A stretch of DNA of 64,000 nt from Holothuria scabra. Its lineage: Eukaryota; Echinodermata; Holothuroidea; Aspidochirotida; Holothuriidae. The first letter of the stretch is position 1. Every line of letters starts with the position of its first letter. The translations under genes and the position numbers were made by a program. The notes beneath the pieces are model-generated. The model saw nothing but the letters and a program-made list of their open reading frames with translations, had not been told where the DNA came from and searched no databases. Below are positions 551 through 60,013 of this stretch, piece after piece. Location of the stretch: assembly GCA_037179385.1 (NCBI GenBank), contig CM074194.1, positions 2,497,001 through 2,561,000 of the forward strand. Direction: 5' to 3'.

Positions 551-867
551 TGCATTCTGGTTTTTATCCTCAAAATTCATGAATATTCTGGTCTAGTGTC
601 AGTTAAATGGGAATGTCCTTGCCCTAATTTTGAGTTGGGTATACTGATTGCTTTCTGTGACAAAGCTAGGGATTTTGGGTTGGAGGGGTGAGAATGGCCT
701 GCAGAGATGTGTTTAGGTAGGCTTTTTAACAAATAAAAAGGGCTGTGTAGGCAATTTTGGTCCATCAGGGTGGAGAGGGGTTGTCCCCTGACCATATGGA
801 TCATCTAGCACTGTTTTCTGTGGTTTTATTGCAGGGAGCAAGGGCACTCTCGTAAAGAGGGCCGTAT
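551..867. other. Unassigned intronic/intergenic DNA
   Basis: I see no gene, splice-supported exon or recognisable repeat boundary between the end of the first dispersed repeat and the start of the LINE. The short frames on both strands here are not supported by any motif. Confidence 0.4.
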
Positions 868-2500
868 TAAGTTTGGGGACCAAACATTGTGACTTATATC
901 CCATACCAACGTGGCTACTAAAGAAATGCATAGATGAAATTGTCCCACTAATCACCGAAATTGCCAATAAGTCTATGCAAAATGGTGAATTTTCCGGATT
1001 GTGGAAACTATCAACAGTAAAGCCCCTAATAAAGAAACCGGGAATGGAGTTGCAGTACGGTAACTATCGATCCATCAGTAATTTGTCATTTCTCTCGAAA
1101 GTGATCGAGAAATTGGTCCTACAACAGTATAATAATCATATCATGACTCATACTCTTCTGCCAGGTTATCAATCTGCATACCGCCAAAACTACAGATGCG
1201 AAACCGCTCTTGTCAGATTGTTCAATGACGCTCTCTGGTCAATGGAGAAAAAACGGGTAACTACACTGTGCAATTGATCTTAGCGCAGCGTTCGACACCG
1301 TTGACCATGATGTTTTGCTGACACTGTTGAAAAATCGATTTGGCATCTCTGGCAACGTTTTCTCATGGTTCCGAGCATACCTCAGACCAAGGCAATTCCG
1401 AGTGCGTGTTGGTGAGACATACTCCGAACCTTGTGCGGTGGTTTATTCTGTGCCGCAAGGTTCGGTGGTCGGTCCGCAATTATTTTCAGCGTATGCTAGC
1501 ACATTAGGTGATGTCGTCATGTCGGGGCATAACATCAGCCTCTATGGGTTTGCGGATGATCACGTCTTGAGTGATGAAATTGATTTGAATGATCCACTTG
1601 CAGAAAGAAGAAGTATCTCCGGTTTAGAGAAGTGCCTAAACTGTGTAAAAGAATGGATGGATTGTAACAGACCAAAAAATGAACATTGACAAAACAGAGT
1701 TTATTATTTTAGGGTCAAAAGTTCAAATTTCTAAATGTATTACAAAAGATCTGCATGTAAATGGAACACATGTTAAGAGAAGTGGGCGTATTAAATATCT
1801 TGGGGCGCATATTGATGAAAACTTATCTCTGAAAGAACACATAACTATCAAAGCACAAATTGCATCACTTAATCTTCATGGAATTCGCATTATTAGAAAT
1901 TATTTAGATCATGATACCTGTCGTACTATTTTACATGCTCTTGTCATCTCACACTTAGATTATGCTAATGCAATATTAATGGGATTACCGGCATGTGATA
2001 TAAACACATTACAACGTGTTCAAAATCGTGCCGCCAAATTAGTACTTCGTGAGGGTAAATACGCCAGTGCTAAGGACTGTTTAAAATCTTTGCACTGGCT
2101 TCCAATTAATCAACGTATTAAGCATAAGGTACTATCTTTGGTATTCAAATCTCTCAATGGTGACGCTCCACAGTACTTAAAGAATTTACTGCGTGAAGTC
2201 CCTGAATCAAAGTACAGATTACGATCTAGAAACCAGGAGTCAATAACCCTTACTGTGCCCTTCACACGTAATTCCACATTTGCTGACAGATCTTTCTCCG
2301 TTTATGGTCCTAAGTTGTGGAATGCCCTTCCTGACAGCATTAAACGTAGTTCAAGTATTTCAATATTTAAAGCTAGGTTGAAAACGCACCTGTTTAAGGA
2401 AGCATTTGGTACTTAGTAAATTCTCTTTTTATTGTAAAGCGCCTCAGAAAACCTTTGGTTCTGGAGTGCGCTATATTAAGTATTATTTACATTACATTAC
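868..2500 (+). mobile_element. 5'-truncated L2/CR1-like non-LTR retrotransposon (LINE)
   Basis: The element starts abruptly inside the reverse-transcriptase reading frame, as expected from 5' truncation during target-primed reverse transcription. It ends with an L2/CR1-type 3' signature: a short inverted motif around AAGCGCCTCAGAAAACC and GAGTGCGCTATATTAAG, then a microsatellite-like tail (TTTACATTACATTAC). No endonuclease domain is present. The only coding part is the RT and C-terminal region, which is broken by frameshifts and described separately. It lies upstream of the first recognised RGS-gene exon. Confidence 0.85.
873..2416 (+). pseudogene. Frameshifted LINE reverse transcriptase (L2/CR1-like)
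   Basis: Three frames continue one protein. At 873-1277 there is a YPIPTWLLKK start, then KKPG, NYRSISNLSFLSKVIEK and YQSAYR, which are RT blocks 1-3. At about 1273-1689 there is LSAAFDTVDHDVLL, SVPQGSVVGPQLF and a catalytic-box variant FADD (1549-1560; the usual form is YADD). At 1679-2416 there is DKTEFIILGS, then the LINE C-terminal region with LHWLPINQRIKHK and GPKLWNALPDSIK. A frameshift lies near 1262-1275 and a second at the A-run near 1672-1680. The canonical family protein also has an N-terminal endonuclease, which is absent here. The copy is dead; the 245-residue third segment is open only by chance preservation. Confidence 0.88.
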
Positions 2501-3650: not shown

Positions 3651-4180
3651 GTAAAGGTTATTCAATCAATGTCATTTTCCCAGATTCATGACAATATTTG
3701 AATGTAGGCTCAAGTTGAAAATATCCGCAAGAGGGGGGGGGGAGGGGAGGTGCAAGGTGTCTGCATAGGAAATTGCAGTTGGTGGGAGGGTACTATCTAG
3801 TACTAGCAGTAATAACTCATTTGTGTATTGGTGCTGCCTCTTTACAAGGCTGGAAGAAAACATAAAATTTCCAGGAAAAGTGTAGGATGTTATGATTTTT
3901 TCCTATTTCCAAGAACAATATGGCCTGTTACCTCCATTTACACATGTAATTGCCCTACTTGCCTTCAAGTCAGACTTCACAAATTTTGGGAACAGACTTT
4001 CCATTTCTCTGATTTTTGTCATGCTTCCAGGCTAGTGTGATACCTGCCTGCTTCAATTTTTCATGCTAGCAAGATAAATAAACCCTACAGTATTTATAAT
4101 TGGCACAAAAAACAAACATGTACTCCTTTTCACTAAAATTAAGAAGTTTACAGCCTGGACTTTTACTAGAATGGTGTTAA

Positions 4181-47767: not shown

Positions 47768-47773
47768 TGCGCA
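47768..47773. repeat. Target-site duplication, left (TGCGCA)
   Basis: This 6-bp sequence is identical to 55625-55630 at the other edge of the palindromic element. Six base pairs is the duplication length of Polinton/Maverick insertions. Confidence 0.65.
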
Positions 47774-47960
47774 AGTAGTGTAGAGATACCCCGGACACCC
47801 CCCCCCAGGGGGCCGATAGGCCCCCAAAGAAGGAGCCTAAAATGGAGCCGATGCTCTTTCGGTGATGGGAGCCTATGTGGGCTACCCGAAAAAGAGGGCG
47901 CTATTTGGAAATCAATAATTGCGCAATAATACGATTGTGTTGCATGAGAATATATGAATT

Positions 47961-48008
<48 letters not shown>

Positions 48009-48213
48009 CTTTGTATTGTTTACTAAAGCGAACAGGTCGTACCATATTGTAATATCGTCATCTTTTCGTATAGGACTATATTTAAAAAGGTTTGATCGGC
48101 TGTATTCGGCATTAGTCTATATAGTCACATTGGGTGAATTGGTACTAAAAATCGCACGAGAACTTGGAAGAAATTTTTAAATGACCAGTTAAACCCTCAC
48201 CCGTCCCCCTTTC

Positions 48214-48596
48214 ATGAAAACCCTTAACCGTGTGGGAAATGAAATTGATGAGAGGTTCGAAACTTCGCTAAATGATATAGCAAAGCATGTTACGTATTTG
48301 TCAGAAAATGAGCCCAACGATATCCCGAACAAGGAGAGGATAAACATACGATTGAAAAACTCGCACAGTCTGCTGGAGAATACGTTGAAGACCGTTGCAC
48401 TCAGTGGATCGAACAACGGGGAGGTTGGGTAAGTATAGGATCATAAGTCTGGTTTATGAGGGGTGAAAAAATCTAACCGGTGTTTTAATCGGTCCATGTA
48501 TTCTTTGGTTTTATCAGGATAACTTTTGTGAAACATTTACGAAAAAAAATCACACAACAGCAGAGTAACTGCGATCAAGATGATGGTGATAGCTAA
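48214..48596 (+). CDS. Palindrome arm gene, unrecognised (two-exon model, left copy)
   Basis: ATG at 48214 opens MKTLNRVGNEIDERFETS, a charged, helix-prone stretch (SLNDIAKHVTYL, NKERINIRLKNSHSLLENTL), up to a consensus donor (TTGG|gtaagt) at 48429. An acceptor (GTTTTATCAG|G, 48517) can continue the frame for 26 codons to a TAA at 48596, with end residues KKITQQQSNCDQDDGDS. Total is about 97 residues. Without splicing it stops at 48432 after 72 residues. In the right arm an extra G before the VGNEID region and a shorter A-run shift the frame, so at least one copy is broken. No family was recognised. Confidence 0.35.
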
Positions 48597-49005
48597 GCTT
48601 GGTGATCCTGACTCTTACTTACAAATGGATGCCCTTGCTTTGAAAGACGAACAAGCACAGGTGAGGATGTATGGTATAAGAAGACCCAATAAAAATAAAA
48701 ACAAGGACTTACTGTGCATGAGATGTTTAAAAGAAAAATGAAGCATATCCCGACAAGAAAAACCAGCAGGCTAGTTCCACAAGGATACACACACAAACAG
48801 GTGAAATATACACAAAATTGCTACGTTTCCAAAGATTTACGGGGTTGACTACATGTTACCTAGCTACACCCCATTAACTAACACGTAAAATGGAACACAT
48901 CATCATGAAGTCGTGGAATCTAGATTGTTGACCAAATTGCAAACAATGCATCTTTGAAAGAATAATTCAAACTCTTGTAATATGGTTCAAGCGCAAAAAC
49001 TCGTC

Positions 49006-49450
49006 CGATAAAGTCCTTCTGGACAGGAAAAATAAACGACTTTGGTTGAGAAGAGCTAAGCATCATCTGAAAGGAAAACAAATTGCTGGTATGGGGAGCA
49101 AACGTGGTTGATAAGGCCCTACTGCACAGGAAAAATAAGCAACTTTGGTTGAAAAGAGCCAAGATATCGTGTAAGAAGTGCGTCCCCGAAGGAAAACAGA
49201 ATGGCAGTACAGGAAGCAAAAAGTAGTCGATAAGGTCTTAGGACAGGAAAATACGCGGCTGTGGGTTAAAAAAAACAACAACTTAGATATAGTAAAAGCT
49301 GTGCATCCTCTAAAAGGAAAACTAAGAGCTGATAGGAAGAACCAAAAAGCTTTCGACAAAACCCTACTGGGCAGGAAAAATAAGCGCATTTTGAGAAAAG
49401 ACAAAGATATCATTAATGAGCGGCTACCCCACAATGTACGAGCATTCTGA
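49006..49450 (+). pseudogene. Palindrome arm lysine-rich tandem-repeat frame (left copy, interrupted)
   Basis: Four diverged DNA units of about 100-125 bp each encode a phrase like VDKALLGRKNKRLWLKRAK, followed by a variable K/R/G-rich stretch. The starts are near 49006, 49102, 49228 and 49342. The last two units lie in one open frame (49178-49450, ending NERLPHNVRAF). Stops and frame changes separate them from the first two. The protein would be highly basic, suggesting a nucleic-acid-binding role by composition only. In complete DNA-virus-like elements such proteins are often virion or nucleoid components, which is a guess here. Confidence 0.4.
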
Positions 49451-50084
49451 TTCAGATTCTGACAGAAAACCTTACTGTACACGTAGTGTCAGCCATTTTA
49501 CTTAGGTCTCTGTCTACGGTGAGGAGGAAGGGTTCACAGTGTTGTACCCCATTCTTGGCGGTGCTCACCAACGCAGTTTGTGAGTGTGAAGAGAAAGGGG
49601 CCAGGGAAGTTGGCCGAATAACTCACGTGTACGTGAGCGTCGTGTCATAAGGACGGGTTTTGCTCACTACTGATGAGTCACTCTCAATCGATAAAACACA
49701 AAGAAAAACAGGGAAATTTCCCGAGTGGCCTGTAGAGGGTGCAACGCATTAAAAACCATCTCTCAAAGCCCTCATATTCGACGAGGTAAATGGGTGTATT
49801 GCTTCTGAGGGCGCATTTGTATCCATGAAATTCTTCCCTCATGGGTTCGCTTAGACTCGAGTCATTACAGCACGGAGAGAAATGAATTAGCGTACTGCTT
49901 GTTTAGCAGAGGACATGTTGAGTGGAAATTGAAGTAATGCTTTGGGTTTGGGGGATTGCACACCATTTCTCTTTCATTTAAGGTCGGCTTTGAAACTTCT
50001 CAGCCAAAAGGTGTAAGTTTGTTCTGGCTGTAAGAATTGAATACGGTACAGTTACTCATCTCAAGAAAAACAGTTTACACTTAT

Positions 50085-50279
50085 TTAGGTTTTGCTGTAT
50101 ACGTGACGAATGGAATATAACTTTGAGAAAATTGACAGATATACGATAAACATTGAGAGGCTCTCAGTGTGCTCATAGTCGTGCTGCACTTGCTCTAACT
50201 GCTCAGTATGCACCAAGTCATGCTCGTCAGCTGCACTGGCAAGGCTCTGTACTGCTCGTGAGTGCACCCCTGTTGCCAT
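50085..50279 (-). CDS. Small frame MATGVHSRAVQSL (left arm copy)
   Basis: A 64-residue frame begins MATGVHSRAVQSLASAADE and contains VHTEQLEQVQHDYEHT. After HDYEHT the two arms diverge in frame because of a one-base difference (ACTGAGAG here, ACTGGAGAG at 53240). The first 37 residues are shared. The DNA is rich in GAGCA/TGCTC pentamers and the frame could be an accident of that. No family was recognised. Confidence 0.25.
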   Translation of the reverse strand: MATGVHSRAVQSLASAADEHDLVHTEQLEQVQHDYEHTESLSMFIVYLSIFSKLYSIRHVYSKT

Positions 50280-50672
50280 CTCCGCTAGGAGCTACGATCA
50301 TGTTGATAGGGGCAATGCTCATGTGCTCTTAAACGTGCTCCAAGAGCGCAAGGCAATGTCTGTCGATACACTTCACAGACAGTTGAACCAATCAAATTGG
50401 TTTGTCATATGACATCATCAACATGTCCAGACGCACTCAGTGTTCCCCGGACCGGTGGGTATGCGATGTTGCAAGAGTTTCTCTTTATTGTAATCGTAAT
50501 ATTGGAAAAGTGAACTATGACACCATGAACTAAATAACGACACAAAAATTCGTTTGCATATATTTTTTTTCGATTTTGCTTGGTTTATTTAACTTTCAGA
50601 ACGTCAACTTTTATAATTATCATTCATAATCCTCCACCAAAAATTTCCAGCGACCATTTATTCTAGGTTGTA

Positions 50673-51146
50673 TTAAAATATGGATGTAGGATCACATCCT
50701 CTGTAAGGTGCGTTTAAAATGTTTCCAATCGCTTTGTTTATTTCGGTCAGTGCTGCCAATGTTTCCGTGGTGCCAGGATCATAGCCACTGTAGCCACGGC
50801 CCTCGTCTTCTTCAACGTCACTACCGGTCTCTTTCTCATCGGATTCCTCTTCGCTGCTGTTGACTTCTTCAGGGTCACTGTCGGTGTTATCCGTGTCGTC
50901 TCTGTCACTCTCAGTATCTCCATCCATGGGGTCAGAGGCACTCTCGTTAGTGTCACTCTCGGAGTTACCAGCGTGGTAACTCTCCTTGGAACTCCTAGTG
51001 TCGCTAGCTTGTTTACCACCGCCATCACGAGCAAAAGAGTTCTTGTCTGGGTTTCTTGTATGGCGGTCATGGACCCTCTCTACATGGCGACGGAGATTAA
51101 AGCTTCGGGTAAACGTGGACGGGCAAACAGGACAGCGATGCGACAT
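50673..51146 (-). CDS. C2H2 zinc-finger protein with acidic tail (left arm copy)
   Basis: This 157-residue frame starts MSHRCPVCPSTFTRSFNLRR and has one C2H2 finger (C5, C8, H21, H26: C-x2-C-x12-H-x4-H) at the very N terminus. A linker (RHTRNPDKNSF) follows, then a long Ser/Asp/Glu-rich acidic segment (about residues 55-120, with SEEESDEKETGSD) and a short conserved-looking end (TLAALTEINKAIGNIL). A single finger plus acidic tail suggests a DNA-binding regulator or transcription activator, but this is inference. The start is the first ATG, right at the finger. The C terminus (NAPYRGCDPTSIF) differs from the right-arm copy because of one A in a short run. An AATAAA lies about 40 bp past the shorter stop in the mirror copy. 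Confidence 0.7.
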   Translation of the reverse strand: MSHRCPVCPSTFTRSFNLRRHVERVHDRHTRNPDKNSFARDGGGKQASDTRSSKESYHAGNSESDTNESASDPMDGDTESDRDDTDNTDSDPEEVNSSEEESDEKETGSDVEEDEGRGYSGYDPGTTETLAALTEINKAIGNILNAPYRGCDPTSIF

Positions 51147-51503
51147 CCTGAAAGGGGTTACGTAGTTTGCCGTGGTTCGTTTTAGAGTGAGAAACTAGCG
51201 GGTCATGGAGCAAGTTAAATATCATTTTATCCCGGAGAGGAGCATCGCAGTGGAGCACATGCTCCTGCGCGTGGGGCGTGCTGAGCAAAATATGGGACCC
51301 TTTTGCTGGCTATAACGAACGTTTAGGCTGTGTAGACACCTAAAAAGAGTAACTTTCTCTCTTCACTCTTTGCCAATACCATGCTGCATATAGTATCAAA
51401 CTGCTAAAGCGTGTTTTCCCTTTAACCCTAATGGCATGATGAGTTAACCGTCACCCGATGCGTCCGATTCGTACTGGTTCTGGATGGGGCGTAAATGAAC
51501 AAC

Positions 51504-51908
51504 TGTGGAAATTTTGGTTCTGTGATGTGTATGATACTTATGTGTTGCATCACTATTCTGCATAAAAAAGTCGGGATGTCTCAAGAAATGTCAGAAACAT
51601 CAATGCAAGTAACATGTTACAGTGATTCGCATATATTAGCAGAATTTTTTATGTTTCATAAATATTTCTTAATGTTTTCTTCTGTAATTCTACATTATGT
51701 CTGTGACATCATTCTTGCAGTGTGTGGCTGCTTTTACAAAAAGGTACACCTTGAGATGACGAAGTTGTCTTTAAAGAATTTTGTGTAAGCACGCCTTTGT
51801 ATAGATTACCATCTCGAGAGGGAAATGAATGCTTATAGTCCATTTTTCGTGCTCAACACTTATCAAAAAGACATGCTATTTACATAACCCTTGCCACTAT
51901 GTCTTCAT
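51504..51908. other. Unique loop at the palindrome centre
   Basis: 405 bp of AT-rich sequence is not shared with either arm. A 97-residue frame (51495-51788) starts within the arm edge and is hydrophobic (FFMFHKYFLMFSSVILHYV). It has no homologue I recognise and may be chance. Transcription of the arm zinc-finger genes would start near the two loop edges, so the loop could act as a bidirectional promoter region. Confidence 0.5.
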
Positions 51909-52265
51909 GTTGTTCATTTACGCCCCATCCAGAACCAGTACGAATCGGACGCATCGGGTGACGGTTAACTCATCATGCCATTAGGGTTAAAGGGAAAACA
52001 CGCTTTAGCAGTTTGATACTATATGCAGCATGGTATTGGCAAAGAGTGAAGAGAGAAAGTTACTCTTTTTAGGTGTCTACACAGCCTAAACGTTCGTTAT
52101 AGCCAGCAAAAGGGTCCCATATTTTGCTCAGCACGCCCCCCGCGCAGGAGCATGTGCTCCACTGCGATGCTCCTCTCCGGGATAAAATGATATTTAACTT
52201 GCTCCATGACCCGCTAGTTTCTCACTCTAAAACAAACCACGGCAAACTACGTAACCCCTTTCAGG

Positions 52266-52721
52266 ATGTCGCATCGCTGTCCTGTTTGCCCGTCCACGTT
52301 TACCCGAAGCTTTAATCTCCGTCGCCATGTAGAGAGGGTCCATGACCGCCATACAAGAAACCCAGACAAGAACTCTTTTGCTCGTGATGGCGGTGGTAAA
52401 CAAGCTAGCGACACTAGGAGTTCCAAGGAGAGTTACCACGCTGGTAACTCCGAGAGTGACACTAACGAGAGTGCCTCTGACCCCATGGATGGAGATACTG
52501 AGAGTGACAGAGGCGACACGGATAACACCGACAGTGACCCTGAAGAAGTCAACAGCAGCGAAGAGGAATCCGATGAGAAAGAGACCGGTAGTGACGTTGA
52601 AGAAGACGAGGGCCGTGGCTACAGTGGCTATGATCCTGGCACCACGGAAACATTGGCAGCACTGACCGAAATAAACAAAGCGATTGGAAACATTTTAAAA
52701 CGCACCTTACAGAGGATGTGA
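52266..52721 (+). CDS. C2H2 zinc-finger protein with acidic tail (right arm copy)
   Basis: This 151-residue copy is identical to the left-arm protein except for a Gly in place of Asp in the acidic segment (ESDRGDTDN) and a different end (KRTLQRM) after GNIL, caused by AAAA against AAA. AATAAA follows at 52751-52756. Both copies are transcribed away from the palindrome centre. Preservation of a 140-residue frame in both arms implies recent duplication, continuing conversion or selection. I do not recognise the family beyond the finger. Confidence 0.7.
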   Translation: MSHRCPVCPSTFTRSFNLRRHVERVHDRHTRNPDKNSFARDGGGKQASDTRSSKESYHAGNSESDTNESASDPMDGDTESDRGDTDNTDSDPEEVNSSEEESDEKETGSDVEEDEGRGYSGYDPGTTETLAALTEINKAIGNILKRTLQRM

Positions 52722-53130
52722 TCCTACATCCATATTTTAATACAACCTAGAATAAATGGTCGCTGGAAATTTTTGGTGGAGGATTATGAATGATAATTAT
52801 AAAAGTTGACGTTCTGAAAGTTAAATAAACCAAGCAAAATCGAAAAAATATATGCAAACGAATTTTTGTGTCGTTATTTAGTTCATGGTGTCATAGTTCA
52901 CTTTTCCAATATTACGATTACAATAAAGAGAAACTCTTGCAACATCGTACCCGTGCGGTCCGGGAACACTGAGTGCGTCTGGACATGTTGATGATGTCAT
53001 ATGACAAACCAATTTGATTGGTTCAACCGTCTGTGAAGTGTATCGACAGACATTGCCTTGCGCTCTTGGAGCACGTTTAAGAGCAATATGAGCATTGCCC
53101 CTATCAACATGATCGTAGCTCCTAGCGGAG

Positions 53131-53349
53131 ATGGCAACAGGGGTGCACTCACGAGCAGTACAGAGCCTTGCCAGTGCAGCTGACGAGCATGACTTGGTGC
53201 ATACTGAGCAGTTAGAGCAAGTGCAGCACGACTATGAGCACACTGGAGAGCCTCTCAATGTTTATCGTATATCTGTCAATTTTCTCAAAGTTATATTCCA
53301 TTCGTCACGTATACAGCAAAACCTAAATAAGTGTAAACTGTTTTCTTGA
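53131..53349 (+). CDS. Small frame MATGVHSRAVQSL (right arm copy)
   Basis: This is the counterpart of 50085-50279, 72 residues. It has the same N-terminal part and a different C-terminal reading (HTGEPLNVYRISVNF). It lies about 410 bp downstream of the zinc-finger gene on the same strand. Low confidence that it is a real protein. Confidence 0.25.
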   Translation: MATGVHSRAVQSLASAADEHDLVHTEQLEQVQHDYEHTGEPLNVYRISVNFLKVIFHSSRIQQNLNKCKLFS

Positions 53350-53959
53350 GATGAGTAACTGTACCGTATTCAATTCTTACAGCCAGAACAAACTTACACC
53401 TTTTGGCTGAGAAGTTTCAAAGCCGACCTTAAATGAAAGAGAAATGGTGTGCAATCCCCCAAACCCAAAGCATTACTTCAATTTCCACTCAACATGTCCT
53501 CTGCTAAACAAGCAGTACGCTAATTCATTTCTCTCCGTGCTGTAATGACTCGAGTCTAAGCGAACCCATGAGGGAAGAATTTCATGGATACAAATGCGCC
53601 CTCAGAAGCAATACACCCATTTACCTCGTCGAATATGAGGGCTTTGAGAGATGGTTTTTAATGCGTTGCACCCTCTACAGGCCACTCGGGAAATTTCCCT
53701 GTTTTTCTTTGTGTTTTATCGATTGAGAGTGACTCATCAGTAGTGAGCAAAACCCGTCCTTATGACACGACGCTCACGTACCGTGAGTTATTCGCCAACC
53801 CCCTAGCCCCTTCTCTTCACACTCACAAACTGCGTTGGTGACACCGCCAAGAATGGGGTACAACACTGTGAACCCTTCCTCCTCACCGTAGACAGAGACC
53901 TAAGTAAAATTTTATTGACACTACGTGTACAGTAAGGTTTTCTGTCAGAATCTGAATCA

Positions 53960-54408
53960 GAATGCTCGTACATTGTGGGGTAGCCGCTCATTAATGATAT
54001 CTTTGTCTTTTCTCAAAATAAACATTTTTCCTGCCCAGTAGGGTTTTGTCGAAAGCTTTTTGGTTCTTCCTATCAGCTCTTAGTTTTCCTTTTAGAGGAT
54101 GCACAGCTTTTACTATATCTAAGTTGTTGTTTTTTTTAACCCACAGCCGCGTATTTTCCCTGTCCTAAGACCTTATCGACTACTTTTTGCTTCCTGTACT
54201 GCCATTCTGTTTTCCTTCGGGGACGCACTTCTTACACGATATCTTGGCTCTTTTCAACCAAAGTTGCTTATTTTTCCTGTGCAGTAGGGCCTTATCAACC
54301 ACGTTTGCTCCCCATACCAGCAATTTGTTTTCCTTTCAGATGATGCTTAGCTCTTCTCAACCAAAGTCGTTTATTTTTCCTGTCCAGAAGGACTTTATCG
54401 GACGAGTT
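53960..54408 (-). pseudogene. Palindrome arm lysine-rich tandem-repeat frame (right copy)
   Basis: This is the inverted counterpart of 49006-49450 with the same repeat organisation. Here the unit at about 54020-54040 reads GAAAAATGTTTATTTTGAG instead of GAAAAATAAGCGCATTTTGAG, one of the clearer arm-to-arm differences. The open frame is shorter than in the left arm. Confidence 0.35.
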
Positions 54409-54812
54409 TTGCGCTTGAACCATATTACAAGAGTTTGAATTATTCTTTCAAAGATGCATTGTTTGCAATTTGGTCAACAATCTAGATTCCACGACTTCAT
54501 GATGATGTGTTCCATTTTACGTGTTAGTTAATGGGGTGTAGCTAGGTAACATGTAGTCAACCCCGTAAATCTTTGGAAACGTAGCAATTTTGTGTATATT
54601 TCACCTGTTTGTGTGTGTATCCTTGTGGAACTAGCCTGCTGGTTTTTCTTGTCGGGATATGCTTCATTTTTCTTTTAAACATCTCATGCACAGTAAGTCC
54701 TTGTTTTTATTTTTATTGGGTCTTCTTATACCATACATCCTCACCTGTGCTTGTTCGTCTTTCAAAGCAAGGGCATCCATTTGTAAGTAAGAGTCAGGAT
54801 CACCAAGCTTAG

Positions 54813-55197
54813 CTATCACCATCATCTTGATCGCAGTTACTCTGCTGTTGTGTGATTTTTTCGTAAATGTTTCACAAAAGTTATCCTGATAAAACCAAAG
54901 AATACATGGACCGATTAAAACACCGGTTAGATTTTTTCACCCCTCATAAACCAGACTTATGATCCTATACTTACCCAACCTCCCCGTTGTTCGATCCACT
55001 GAGTGCAACGGTCTTCAACGTATTCTCCAGCAGACTGTGCGAGTTTTTCAATCGTATGTTTATCCTCTCCTTGTTCGGGATATCGTTGGGCTCATTTTCT
55101 GACAAATACGTAACATGCTTTGCTATATCATTTAGCGAAGTTTCGAACCTCTCATCAATTTCATTTCCCCACACGGTTAAGGGTTTTCATGAAAGGG
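54813..55197 (-). pseudogene. Palindrome arm gene, right copy (frameshifted)
   Basis: This is the counterpart of 48214-48596. The core frame (GNEIDERFETSLND to SNNGEVG) is intact at 54971-55168. One extra G separates it from the ATG, and the A-run in the downstream part is two bases shorter, giving a different ending. I therefore treat this copy as disrupted. Confidence 0.4.
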
Positions 55198-55397
55198 GAC
55201 GGGTGAGGGTTTAACTGGTCATTTAAAAACTTTCTTCCAAGTTCTCGTGCGATTTTTAGTACCAATTTCACCCAATGTGACTATATAGACTAATGCCGAA
55301 TACAGCCGATCAAACCTTTTTAAATATAGTCCTATACGAAAAGATGACGATATTACAATATGGTACGACCTGTTCGCTTTAGTAAACAATACAAAGA

Positions 55398-55437
<40 letters not shown>

Positions 55438-55624
55438 AATTCATATATTCTCATGCAACACAATCGTATTATTGCGCAATTATTGATTTCCAAATAGCGC
55501 CCTCTTTTTCGGGTAGCCCACATAGGCTCCCATCACCGAAAGAGCATCGGCTCCATTTTAGGCTCCTTCTTTGGGGGCCTATCGGCCCCCTGGGGGGGGG
55601 TGTCCGGGGTATCTCTACACTACT

Positions 55625-55630
55625 TGCGCA
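55625..55630. repeat. Target-site duplication, right (TGCGCA)
   Basis: Partner of 47768-47773. Beyond it the sequence (CCCCCCATAAG) is unrelated to the left flank on either strand. Confidence 0.65.
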
Positions 55631-58020: not shown

Positions 58021-59381
58021 GTAAGTTCCAAGTTTTAAATTTGCAACTTTGTTGCACCACTTATTTGGGGGGAGGGGGGGAGGGGTGTACAGGTTTATGA
58101 GGGTGGTAGTGATGGAAGTGAAGGTAGAGAGAACCACTTTATGTATGAGACCTGTCAAAACTGCTGTACGCACTTCCCAAGTTCATTCTCACAAACCTGT
58201 CATGCATCACAATAGTTAGAGCTCAATGTTTAAAAAGTAAGTATAGACGAATCCGATCTGCGCTTGTTTTTAGTGACTGTGGGCAGCCATCAGCCTTGAA
58301 TCATCTTTATATATCATCTACATGAGTTTCAAAACCTCATATTCAGTGAAATTGAAGGAATCAAGATACAATTTAGTGTACAACCATCCATGATACAGGT
58401 AAGCAAGGAAATTGAAAGATTAAACTGTAATGGACTCCAGTTATGGCCAACTGAAATCAGACCATCACTTGCTGTCCAGGTTCGTCTATAGTATTGTGGT
58501 AGATATAACTGTGGCCTGCATGAAGATATTTATATACCACATTCTTCTAACAGGGAGTTATGACCTCAGTGTGATTAAAATAGACTGAATGAAAAGGTGG
58601 GCTTCCTAACACTGAGTAAGTCGTGTTACATCCTGCTATTACTTTTCCCATGTTAATTAAACAAGTTTGGAGGTATATATAGCATAGGAATATTTATAGA
58701 AAGTAAATGAATAATTATACTCAGTTGAATTAACCTGTTTTGCTCACTTTAATATCAAAGGGGATGAACCTGTAGAAACTTGCTGTCAATAATGTTATCA
58801 AAATTGTTTGAGTAGTTTGACATGAGTGCCAGTTTTCATAAGGTTTTTGAACTTTTCGACTGACCCAGACATTTTAGGTTTTGAAATTAAGAAGGAAAAT
58901 TGAGTGAGCCAAGTGACTACATAAGCATCTGTCCTTGTCTGAGTTTTTCCTTTCCCCAGTGAGATATTTGCATCAGTGGTTAACATGACTCGGGGCAACT
59001 GCTTAGGGCACACAATGCCAAGATAGTTACTCGTTATTAAAATTTTTAACATGTTGAATTATGTATTGGTTCACATCACTGACATATACCTGCCCCTTGC
59101 TACATCTAAATTGAAAATCACTCATCCACCGCTTGCTACTCATCCACCCCTTACCCCTTACTTGGGGCAAAGTGGGGGCGCAGTTTTCGCACCGCATCCC
59201 CACTTTGTCCCAGTTGACCAGTAGATTTCCCTCATTTCTCAAAGTTGTAAACACCTGTCCATAACATTTCATCATACATGTTTATCAATTACAAGAGTCA
59301 TTTTATTGATCTTATTTCATTTATTGTTTTTTATGCATTAAGCAAAGGGTATTCCAATCTTATCTTCTCTTCTGCCAACAG
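58021..59381. other. Intron between RGS-domain exons
   Basis: It contains a G-rich run near 58066-58085 and AT-rich DNA. No repeat with partners in the window was recognised. The minus-strand frames at 58798-59275 lack motifs. Confidence 0.5.
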
Positions 59382-59468
59382 GATTTTCTGAAGCAAGAAT
59401 TTAGTGAAGAAAATATTTTGTTTTGGATAGCATGTGAACAACTCAGTAAAGTTACTAACAAGGCAGAG
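59382..59468 (+). CDS. RGS12/14-like gene, second RGS-domain exon
   Basis: This 87-nt exon has an acceptor CTTCTGCCAACAG (59381) and a donor GAG|gtaaga (59469). Phase 0 at both ends gives 29 residues, DFLKQEFSEENILFWIACEQ and then LSKVTNKAE. FSEENILFW is the most conserved RGS block; the Asn in EEN is the residue that contacts the Galpha switch regions in characterised RGS proteins, and it is present, so the domain should be catalytically competent. Together with the previous exon about 50 of about 120 RGS residues are covered. The remaining helices must lie in later exons. I searched the last 4.5 kb by eye and found no convincing next exon. Confidence 0.9.
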
Positions 59469-60013
59469 GTAAGAAAGAGACTGATTTTGGTAAAAGAAAA
59501 ACTTCTTTTTTCTTCTTCTGTTTGTAGACTTGTAAGAAATCTACATTGTTCATATTTATGCTTGGTACTTGGTACACTGTATTTTTGTCACAAGACTCAC
59601 CTGAACATTCTTGAAGGTGGGATCGTTAGTGTTTCACAGAAGTTTTGAAGTGTGGTTCATTCAGTACCACCTTAAATTGAATGATTGGGGGTTGTGCCTT
59701 TAAAACACTGTTCAATGCAGACCTGTAGCCCGACAAGGCAAAGAAGGAGGGCCAAAACTTTCCAAGGGGGGAGAAAATTTTTCCAAGGGTTGGGGCAAAT
59801 GTATTAAGTCAGTGGCAAACTTGGAAGTCGCTAGGGGGGCAAAAAATCTTGGGGGGATAGGTGTGAAGTCCCCTTGGCCCCCTTTGGCTATAGGCCTTGT
59901 TCAGTGAGTTGTTCATTGCCACCCTATGGGTTTGGAAACATACTGTTTTACTTTGGATGCTTTAGACTAGTCCTTTGCATAGAAGTACATAACTTCCTGC
60001 CAACCTTTACTTA
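59469..60013. other. Intronic DNA with a G-rich repeat-like patch
   Basis: The stretch at 59715-59905 (CCAAGGGGGG, GGGGCAAA, GGCCCCCTTTGGC...AGGCC) looks like a diverged dispersed repeat. No partner was found in this window and there is no exon evidence. Confidence 0.35.

What the first reader, a model, noticed from the sequence alone, without database searches (positions are those of the whole stretch)
47768..55630. 7.85-kb near-perfect palindrome with Polinton-type ends and 6-bp duplication
Seen: inverted arms of 3730 and 3716 bp, a 405-bp loop, AG...CT termini and TGCGCA on both sides with unrelated flanks. Known: Polintons/Mavericks have AG...CT ends, 6-bp duplications and terminal inverted repeats usually of hundreds of bp to about 1 kb. 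Inferred: this is a defective derivative in which nearly the whole element is inverted repeat. It might have formed by snap-back synthesis during protein-primed replication (as in palindromic defective genomes of protein-primed DNA viruses) or by internal deletion of an element with exceptional inverted repeats. I know of no described element quite like it.
Basis: partly seen in the sequence, partly recalled or inferred. Interest (0 to 1): 0.93.

Follow-up and report, generated by a model that had tools for sequence, protein, structure and literature searches.

The report
Near-total palindromic Polinton transposon family
In what is probably a sea cucumber genome, a virus-like jumping element has shrunk to two mirror-image copies of one of its own ends, inserted at many sites, and the two halves of a copy are often more alike to each other than to other copies, which hints at hairpin-based copying.

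Summary
It is not a one-off. The arm end found 24 loci, all read: 20 have both ends around inverted arms, 19 of those 20 with a perfect 6-bp duplication (shifted control 0 of 200). A genome scan for the end gives 29 convergent pairs of 3.0-8.4 kb (20 read), one of 11.9 kb and four of about 16 kb. The one 16-kb pair read is a Polinton-type element (integrase, packaging-type ATPase, capsid-family protein, Bcl-2 gene, inverted repeat of about 185 bp, 6-bp duplication). Its right end matches the outer 1.65 kb of the arm; the terminal 140 bp are 97.9% identical. Both arms carry the same 88-bp scar in that Bcl-2 gene, so both descend from one end. At C1 (0.5 kb read), and by position at two more loci, the spacer adjoins a Polinton left-end gene, as expected of a linear precursor. 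Arms of one copy share private changes (114 sites, against 3 between copies). Best reading: a non-autonomous Polinton lineage made by copy-back of the right end and spread in trans as a palindrome; the replication steps are inferred.

The parts
47768..47773 (.). left target-site duplication TGCGCA
47774..51503 (+). left arm, 3730 bp, an inverted copy of a Polinton right end (outer 1.65 kb) plus inner sequence with a zinc-finger ORF
47774..47913 (+). terminal 140 bp, 97.9% identical to both ends of the 16-kb element at C16:8616855-8632886
48214..48435 (+). remnant of a Bcl-2-like gene with an internal 88-bp deletion (junction about 48291; limits approximate); its relative at the right end of the 16-kb element scores Pfam Bcl-2 E 4.7e-20
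49007..49413 (+). degenerate short tandem units inside the arm (about 67-75% alike; limits approximate)
50673..51146 (-). C2H2 zinc-finger ORF of the left arm, 157 aa, last residues altered by a 1-bp difference from the right arm
51504..51908 (.). 405-bp spacer between the arms, shared by other copies; at C1, and by position at C15 and C22, it lies next to a Polinton left-end gene
51909..55624 (-). right arm, 3716 bp
52266..52721 (+). C2H2 zinc-finger ORF of the right arm, 151 aa; 52% identical to HOLleu_25313 of Holothuria leucospilota
54960..55185 (-). Bcl-2-like remnant of the right arm with the same deletion (approximate limits)
55485..55624 (-). terminal 140 bp of the right end (approximate inner limit)
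55625..55630 (.). right target-site duplication TGCGCA

Best explanation
The feature is one copy of a non-autonomous Polinton/Maverick family whose genome is a near-complete palindrome. Shown: the family, its ends and duplications, its kinship to a full-size Polinton-type element in the same genome, and the descent of both arms from one (right) end. Inferred: an ancestor with a left-end gene, the spacer, a zinc-finger gene and the right end underwent copy-back during protein-primed replication. The strand growing from the right end switched to the opposite strand, jumped over the spacer and copied back to the same end, so the left end was replaced by a second right end. The palindrome was then replicated and integrated in trans by Polinton polymerase, terminal protein and integrase, which see normal ends. 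Each displaced single strand can fold into a hairpin in which the two arms pair and can correct each other, keeping arms alike within a copy while copies diverge.
For: Family: 24 loci read of 24 found by the arm end (a lower bound), 20 with both ends, 19 of 20 with perfect 6-bp duplications, shifted control 0 of 200. Polinton kinship: 16.03-kb element with 6-bp duplication GAAATT, TIR of about 185 bp (99%), rve 1.4e-11, Pox_A32 8e-5 (just under its cut-off), Bcl-2 4.7e-20, PC4 7.6e-6, capsid-family piece with 2,833 relatives. One-end origin: terminal 140 bp 97.9%, outer arm homologous beyond that only to the right end, the same 88-bp scar in 40 arms at 22 of 23 loci examined. Precursor: spacer next to the left-end gene at C1 (read) and, by position, at C15 and C22, plus a 77-bp remnant of that gene between arm and spacer at C17. 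Concerted arms: bases found in exactly two arms lie in the same copy 114 times, in different copies 3 times; a second subfamily has arms identical over 398 of 398 bp but 89-93% to this one.
Against: No replication or transposition was observed. The inner 2 kb of the arm, with the zinc finger, is absent from the one 16-kb element read, so the exact parent is not in hand. At C1 only 0.5 kb left of the spacer was read, at C15 and C22 only positions are known, and at C17 only the left side of the spacer was read; C1, C15 and C22 could still be palindromes with a longer spacer. Only 11 of 19 copies have arms closer to each other than to any other copy for both arms. Of the 8 others, 3 have one gap-ridden arm (L016, L021, L023), L027 has a short right arm so that the slice compared runs into other sequence, and 4 (L017, L019, L020, the window copy) simply fail or tie. 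The four odd arms were dropped before the 114:3 count, and 65 of the 114 come from one copy, L022. The terminal 140 bp are not less variable among palindromes than the rest of the arm, so no special constraint on the ends is shown. The polymerase of the 16-kb copy is in pieces and its Pfam/PHROG scores are weak.
Confidence: 0.72

Rival explanations
1. Same origin, but the arms are kept alike by gene conversion between arms after insertion, as in chromosomal palindromes, not by hairpin pairing during replication.
For: In L018 the palindrome extends into the spacer: the left edge of the spacer reads, by eye, as a reversed copy of its right edge. L014 and L023 are palindromic through the centre. 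Such inward growth fits conversion in place.
Against: L022 has 65 private changes in both arms and 1 in one arm, which suggests that its arms were already alike when it inserted. Many copies keep differences private to one arm (99 sites in 15 copies; some may be read errors), so conversion after insertion is not fast.
Confidence: 0.2
2. The palindrome arose on the chromosome by an inverted duplication during break repair of an inserted short Polinton derivative, and was later amplified by Polinton enzymes.
For: The same anatomy would result. One-arm loci L024 and L026, with arms ending at or near the centre and unrelated DNA beyond, suggest that the palindrome centre breaks on the chromosome.
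Against: The spacer-left junction differs between L041 (arm position 2862) and the window type (3693), with the same left-end gene beyond. Repeated events of one polarity fit replication of the element better; inward growth of the arms could explain it too.
Confidence: 0.15
3. Assembly artefact: two inverted copies joined by error.
For: Inverted repeats are hard to read and the arm differences look like read errors (PMC7229812 as seen in the listing).
Against: 20 loci with different flanks, 19 with matching private 6-bp duplications, different central deletions, and a reproducible 405-bp spacer.
Confidence: 0.02
4. An unrelated fold-back superfamily that happens to have AG...CT ends and 6-bp duplications.
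For: No integrase, polymerase or capsid protein was recognised among the ORFs of the palindrome.
Against: 140 bp of end at 97.9% identity and about 1.5 kb of further homology to a Polinton-type element in the same genome.
Confidence: 0.02

Closest known systems
Polinton/Maverick (Polintovirus, adintovirus-like) elements
   Same: 6-bp duplication, AG...CT ends, matching terminal sequence, homology to the right end of a full-size member in the same genome
   Different: 7.85 kb, not 15-20 kb (size range recalled; 16.0 kb for the partner read); no integrase, polymerase, ATPase or capsid gene recognised in it; about 95% of its length is inverted repeat, against a TIR of about 185 bp in the full-size element
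Palindromic defective genomes of protein-primed replicons (adenovirus incomplete-particle DNA; hairpin and palindromic derivatives of the yeast linear killer plasmid) - recalled, not read here
   Same: one end duplicated in inverted orientation, presumably by copy-back during protein-primed synthesis
   Different: those are extrachromosomal forms; this one is integrated at many sites, has a second subfamily and shows concerted evolution of arms
Fold-back elements (FB, Galileo, sea urchin TU) - recalled
   Same: long inverted arms, short spacer, asymmetric copies
   Different: 6-bp duplications and Polinton homology here; those families are recalled to make 7-9 bp duplications

Membership tests
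Polinton/Maverick | 6-bp target-site duplication | tested here: met
   19 of 20 copies 6/6, one 5/6; shifted control 0 of 200. 6 bp for Polinton: PMC10045372, passages
Polinton/Maverick | AG...CT termini (recalled) | tested here: met
   window copy AGTAGT...ACTACT; in the genome scan 59 of 80 ends are exact over 18 bases and 21 have one mismatch
Polinton/Maverick | terminal inverted repeats shared with a full-size member | tested here: met
   140 bp at 97.9% to both ends of C16:8616855-8632886
Polinton/Maverick | own protein-primed PolB, integrase, ATPase, protease and capsid genes (autonomous member) | tested here: not met
   none recognised: ORF list and Pfam on five of its ORFs; it can only be a non-autonomous derivative
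Polinton/Maverick (the 16-kb partner) | retroviral-like integrase, packaging ATPase, capsid protein | tested here: met
   rve 1.4e-11; Pox_A32 8e-5 (22.7 bits, cut-off 22.8); 401-aa piece matches a family named F54H12.2-like and, in one case, Capsid protein
Polinton/Maverick (the 16-kb partner) | family B DNA polymerase | tested here: inconclusive
   PHROG DNA polymerase E 0.008, Pfam DNA_pol_B_2 E 0.061 for one piece; other pieces show motifs recognised by eye only
Polinton/Maverick | replication by protein priming and integration in trans | not testable with these tools
   inferred
Fold-back elements (FB/Galileo/TU) | duplication length of 7-9 bp (recalled) | tested here: not met
   6 bp
Ginger1/Ginger2 (same integrase class) | 4-5 bp duplications and TGT-type ends | tested here: not met
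   6 bp and AGT ends; features from passages of PMC10045372 and PMC2836005

The most novel reading that the evidence does not exclude
A satellite lineage of Polintons that has given up a two-ended genome: it lives as a self-complementary hairpin/palindrome, is copied by the polymerase and integrase of full-size Polintons, and proof-reads one arm against the other in each replication cycle. Its zinc-finger gene, present twice and reading outward from the centre, would be its only own function. It would be a germline counterpart of copy-back defective genomes.
Probability: 0.5. Interest if true: 0.87.

Novelty: new variant of a known kind. Interest (0 to 1): 0.8.

Why it matters
How Polintons copy themselves in animals is inferred from their genes, as far as I know. 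A germline family that carries one end twice, in the form expected of copy-back by a protein-primed polymerase, is sequence evidence for that mode of replication and leaves testable junctions. The concerted arms would give a natural record of hairpin pairing per transposition cycle. The family also shows that an animal genome can hold at least 20 multi-kilobase palindromes of one kind, with central deletions and half-copies that record how such palindromes decay.

Tried and rejected
Tried without result: zinc-finger ORF in viral contigs (none); capsid piece and an alignment of capsid proteins in viral contigs (none); Pfam on five ORFs of the palindrome (only the zinc finger of note); Pfam on short polymerase pieces (nothing beyond the weak match already seen). 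Literature on this kind of element: nine searches; two returned nothing and several listings were cut (25 of 44, 25 of 128, 15 of 20, 12 of 525 papers). I saw titles and starts of abstracts only, except passages of PMC10045372, PMC6431247, PMC2836005 and PMC2871265. No palindromic Polinton family was among the papers listed; the library holds open-licence PMC papers only.

Considered and dropped: that six loci with one inner-arm hit and one spacer hit in the capped lists (C4, C20, C3, C22:31.9 Mb, C14, C7) are the linear parent. One of the six, C4 (L039), was read and is a second palindromic subfamily with a central deletion of about 219 bp; the other five were not read. Also dropped: that one-arm copies L024 and L026 are full-size elements. 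About 25 kb beyond each arm shows no second end, and in the part of the output seen the main blocks shared between the two are tandem repeats.

Not settled: positions of capsid, polymerase and zinc-finger genes in the whole genome. Those searches did not complete (last tries).
Full report
What is there. The window lies at C16:2497001-2561000 of a 1.19-Gb genome in 31 contigs. The element runs 47774-55624: left arm 3,730 bp, spacer 405 bp, right arm 3,716 bp, ends AGTAGT...ACTACT, TGCGCA on both sides. Identity of the arms is 98.6% with gaps counted. Many of the differences are one-base homopolymer indels or tight clusters, and in the most different arms of other copies gap positions outnumber mismatches (L016: 21 mismatches, 137 gap positions; L021: 55 and 94; L023: 83 and 167). 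This looks like read error in inverted repeats, an effect described for nanopore data (PMC7229812, title and start of abstract seen in the listing), so I treat the identities as lower bounds.

It is a family. A search with 401 bp of the arm end gave 44 matches at 24 loci (only the best candidates are scored, so a lower bound). All 24 were read (and the window). Twenty have both ends around inverted arms (one of them, L033, with a right arm of only about 0.75 kb), two are single arms (L024, L026), and two have one end only within the stretch read (L034, L035). Of the 20, 19 have a perfect 6-bp duplication and one has 5 of 6; the same test shifted outward by 10-55 bp gave 0 of 200. A scan of the whole genome for the first 18 bases with up to one mismatch gave 80 matches against 1 for the reversed pattern. 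They pair into 34 convergent pairs: 29 of 2.98-8.38 kb, of which 20 were read, one of 11.9 kb, four of 16.00-16.15 kb; 12 are unpaired. Different loci have different central and arm deletions. This speaks strongly against an assembly join as the origin of the palindrome.

The full-size partner. One 16-kb pair was read in two separate pieces, L037 and L038 (C16:8616855-8632886). It has GAAATT on both sides and a terminal inverted repeat of about 185 bp (a 191-column alignment at 98.95% that takes in a few flanking bases). It has an integrase core (Pfam rve, E 1.4e-11), a packaging-type ATPase (Pox_A32, E 8e-5; Adeno_IVa2, E 0.0012, for its neighbouring piece; both under the curated cut-offs, the first by 0.1 bit), a Bcl-2 gene at the right end (E 4.7e-20) and a PC4-domain ORF at the left end (E 7.6e-6). 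A 401-aa piece has 2,833 relatives, the best in Holothuria leucospilota (86%) and Apostichopus japonicus (71%), with names such as F54H12.2-like and, in one case among the 120 listed, Capsid protein. Polymerase evidence is weak because that gene is in pieces in this copy. I take this as a Polinton, whose published traits include a retroviral-like integrase, a protein-primed polymerase, a packaging ATPase and jelly-roll capsid proteins (PMC6431247, passages) and a 6-bp duplication (PMC10045372, passages). The host is therefore probably a sea cucumber near Holothuria; this is inferred from best matches only.

How the palindrome relates to it. The first 140 bp of the arm are 97.9% identical to both ends of the 16-kb element. 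The next stretches match only its right end, at 71-96% per 140 bp as far as arm position about 1120, falling to 63-77% at positions 1121-1680. In the arm the Bcl-2 gene has lost 88 bp. With up to two edits allowed, the deletion junction was found in 40 arms at 22 of 23 loci examined (L035 was left out); 18 of the 20 palindromic copies show it in both arms, L021 and L023 in one. The exception, L034, has lost that stretch. The missing 88 bp were found at none of the 23. So the two arms descend from one end and not from the two ends of a normal element.

The spacer and the precursor. The 405-bp spacer gave 42 matches and the arm next to it 40 (in both searches only the best 40 candidates were scored). 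Four kinds of locus give a series. (1) Window type: arm to position 3730, spacer, arm. (2) L039 at C4: a second palindromic subfamily, 89-93% to the window type, with a central deletion of about 219 bp (by subtraction) and arms identical over the 398 bp that were read of both. (3) L041 at C17, of which only 281 bp on the left of the spacer were read: arm to position 2862 joined to 77 bp that encode the end of a Polinton left-end gene, then the spacer edge. (4) L040 at C1: about 0.5 kb with that left-end gene (tblastn E 2.8e-9 to the ORF at L037:1109-1585), then the last 37 bp of the arm, the spacer and the right arm with the zinc finger, but no left arm in the stretch read. A genome search with the gene-spacer junction found four places: C1, C15 and C22 with the gene beside a spacer match, and C17 with its end only (C15 and C22 known by position alone). 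I read the polarity as gene-spacer-right arm first, second right arm later. At the window-type junction the arm and the left-end sequence share CGATT (by eye), the kind of short match at which a growing strand can switch template.

Concerted evolution. Over the first 2.1 kb, 11 of 19 copies have arms closer to each other than to any other copy for both arms. Of the 8 others, L016, L021 and L023 have one gap-ridden arm, L027 has a short right arm, and L017, L019, L020 and the window copy fail or tie. After leaving out those four odd arms, bases present in exactly two arms lie in the same copy 114 times and in different copies 3 times; if arms were independent about 3 of these 117 would be expected in the same copy (by hand). 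L022 alone gives 65 of the 114, so 49 against 3 without it. L022 has 65 changes private to both arms and 1 private to one arm, which suggests that its arms were alike when it inserted. This fits pairing of the arms in a hairpin form before insertion better than slow conversion afterwards, though L018 (spacer edge copied inward, by eye) and L014 and L023 (palindromic through the centre) show that centres also change.

The zinc-finger ORF. Arms that reach far enough carry a C2H2 ORF reading outward from the centre. Of 27 near-full-length matches, 15 are intact at 151 aa (13 different sequences); of the other 12, three are within three residues of that length and the rest are shortened or altered. 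Among the 13 there are 15 replacement and 8 silent variants (ratio 0.48), too few to prove selection. Two relatives were found in the protein collection; the only named one is HOLleu_25313 of Holothuria leucospilota (52%). It was not found in the 16-kb element that was read. Its source and role are open.

How it most likely works. Shown: inserted family, duplications, Polinton ends, descent from one end, a second subfamily, concerted arms. Inferred: copy-back during protein-primed replication from the right end made the palindrome. Full-size Polintons supply polymerase, terminal protein and integrase. A displaced strand of the palindrome folds into a hairpin whose paired end is a regular origin, so one initiation copies the whole element. 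Mismatches between arms can be corrected in the hairpin. Analogues recalled, not read here, are palindromic incomplete adenovirus genomes and the hairpin and palindromic derivatives of the yeast linear killer plasmid.

Limits. Only one of four 16-kb pairs was read. Whole-genome searches for capsid, polymerase and zinc-finger genes did not complete. The terminal 140 bp vary among palindromes about as much as the rest of the arm (mean pairwise difference 0.022, against 0.010-0.039 for other 140-bp stretches), so their match to the full-size element may reflect recent exchange as well as constraint. Novelty rests on nine searches of open-licence papers with partly cut listings, which showed no such family; subscription papers and repeat databases were not searched.

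Noticed in passing
L038:7431-7955 (-): The full-size Polinton-type element carries a Bcl-2 family gene at its right end (Pfam E 4.7e-20), an apoptosis regulator in a virus-like transposon.
   Followed up: partly
L024, L026: Solo arms ending near the palindrome centre (positions 3682 and 3729) with unrelated DNA beyond. The left arm of L033 and the unread C18:41619664 also end at 3682.
   Followed up: partly
L014, L023: Copies whose palindrome runs through the centre without a unique spacer.
   Followed up: partly
L018 centre: The left edge of the spacer looks, by eye, like a reversed copy of its right edge, as if the palindrome had grown inward.
   Followed up: partly
L016, L021, L023: One arm of the copy is riddled with small gaps while the other is clean; probably read errors in inverted repeats.
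   Followed up: partly
window 59310-59645 (+): Exon with an RGS domain (Pfam E 1.2e-6), consistent with the insertion lying in or near an RGS gene.
   Followed up: partly
window 792-2413 (+): Adjacent open frames that read like a non-LTR retrotransposon reverse transcriptase in pieces (by eye; the one piece scanned, 1649-2413, had no Pfam match).
   Followed up: no
C1 about 61.805-61.808 Mb and C7 about 33.504-33.515 Mb: Similar tandem arrays with units of about 145 bp beyond two solo arms.
   Followed up: no
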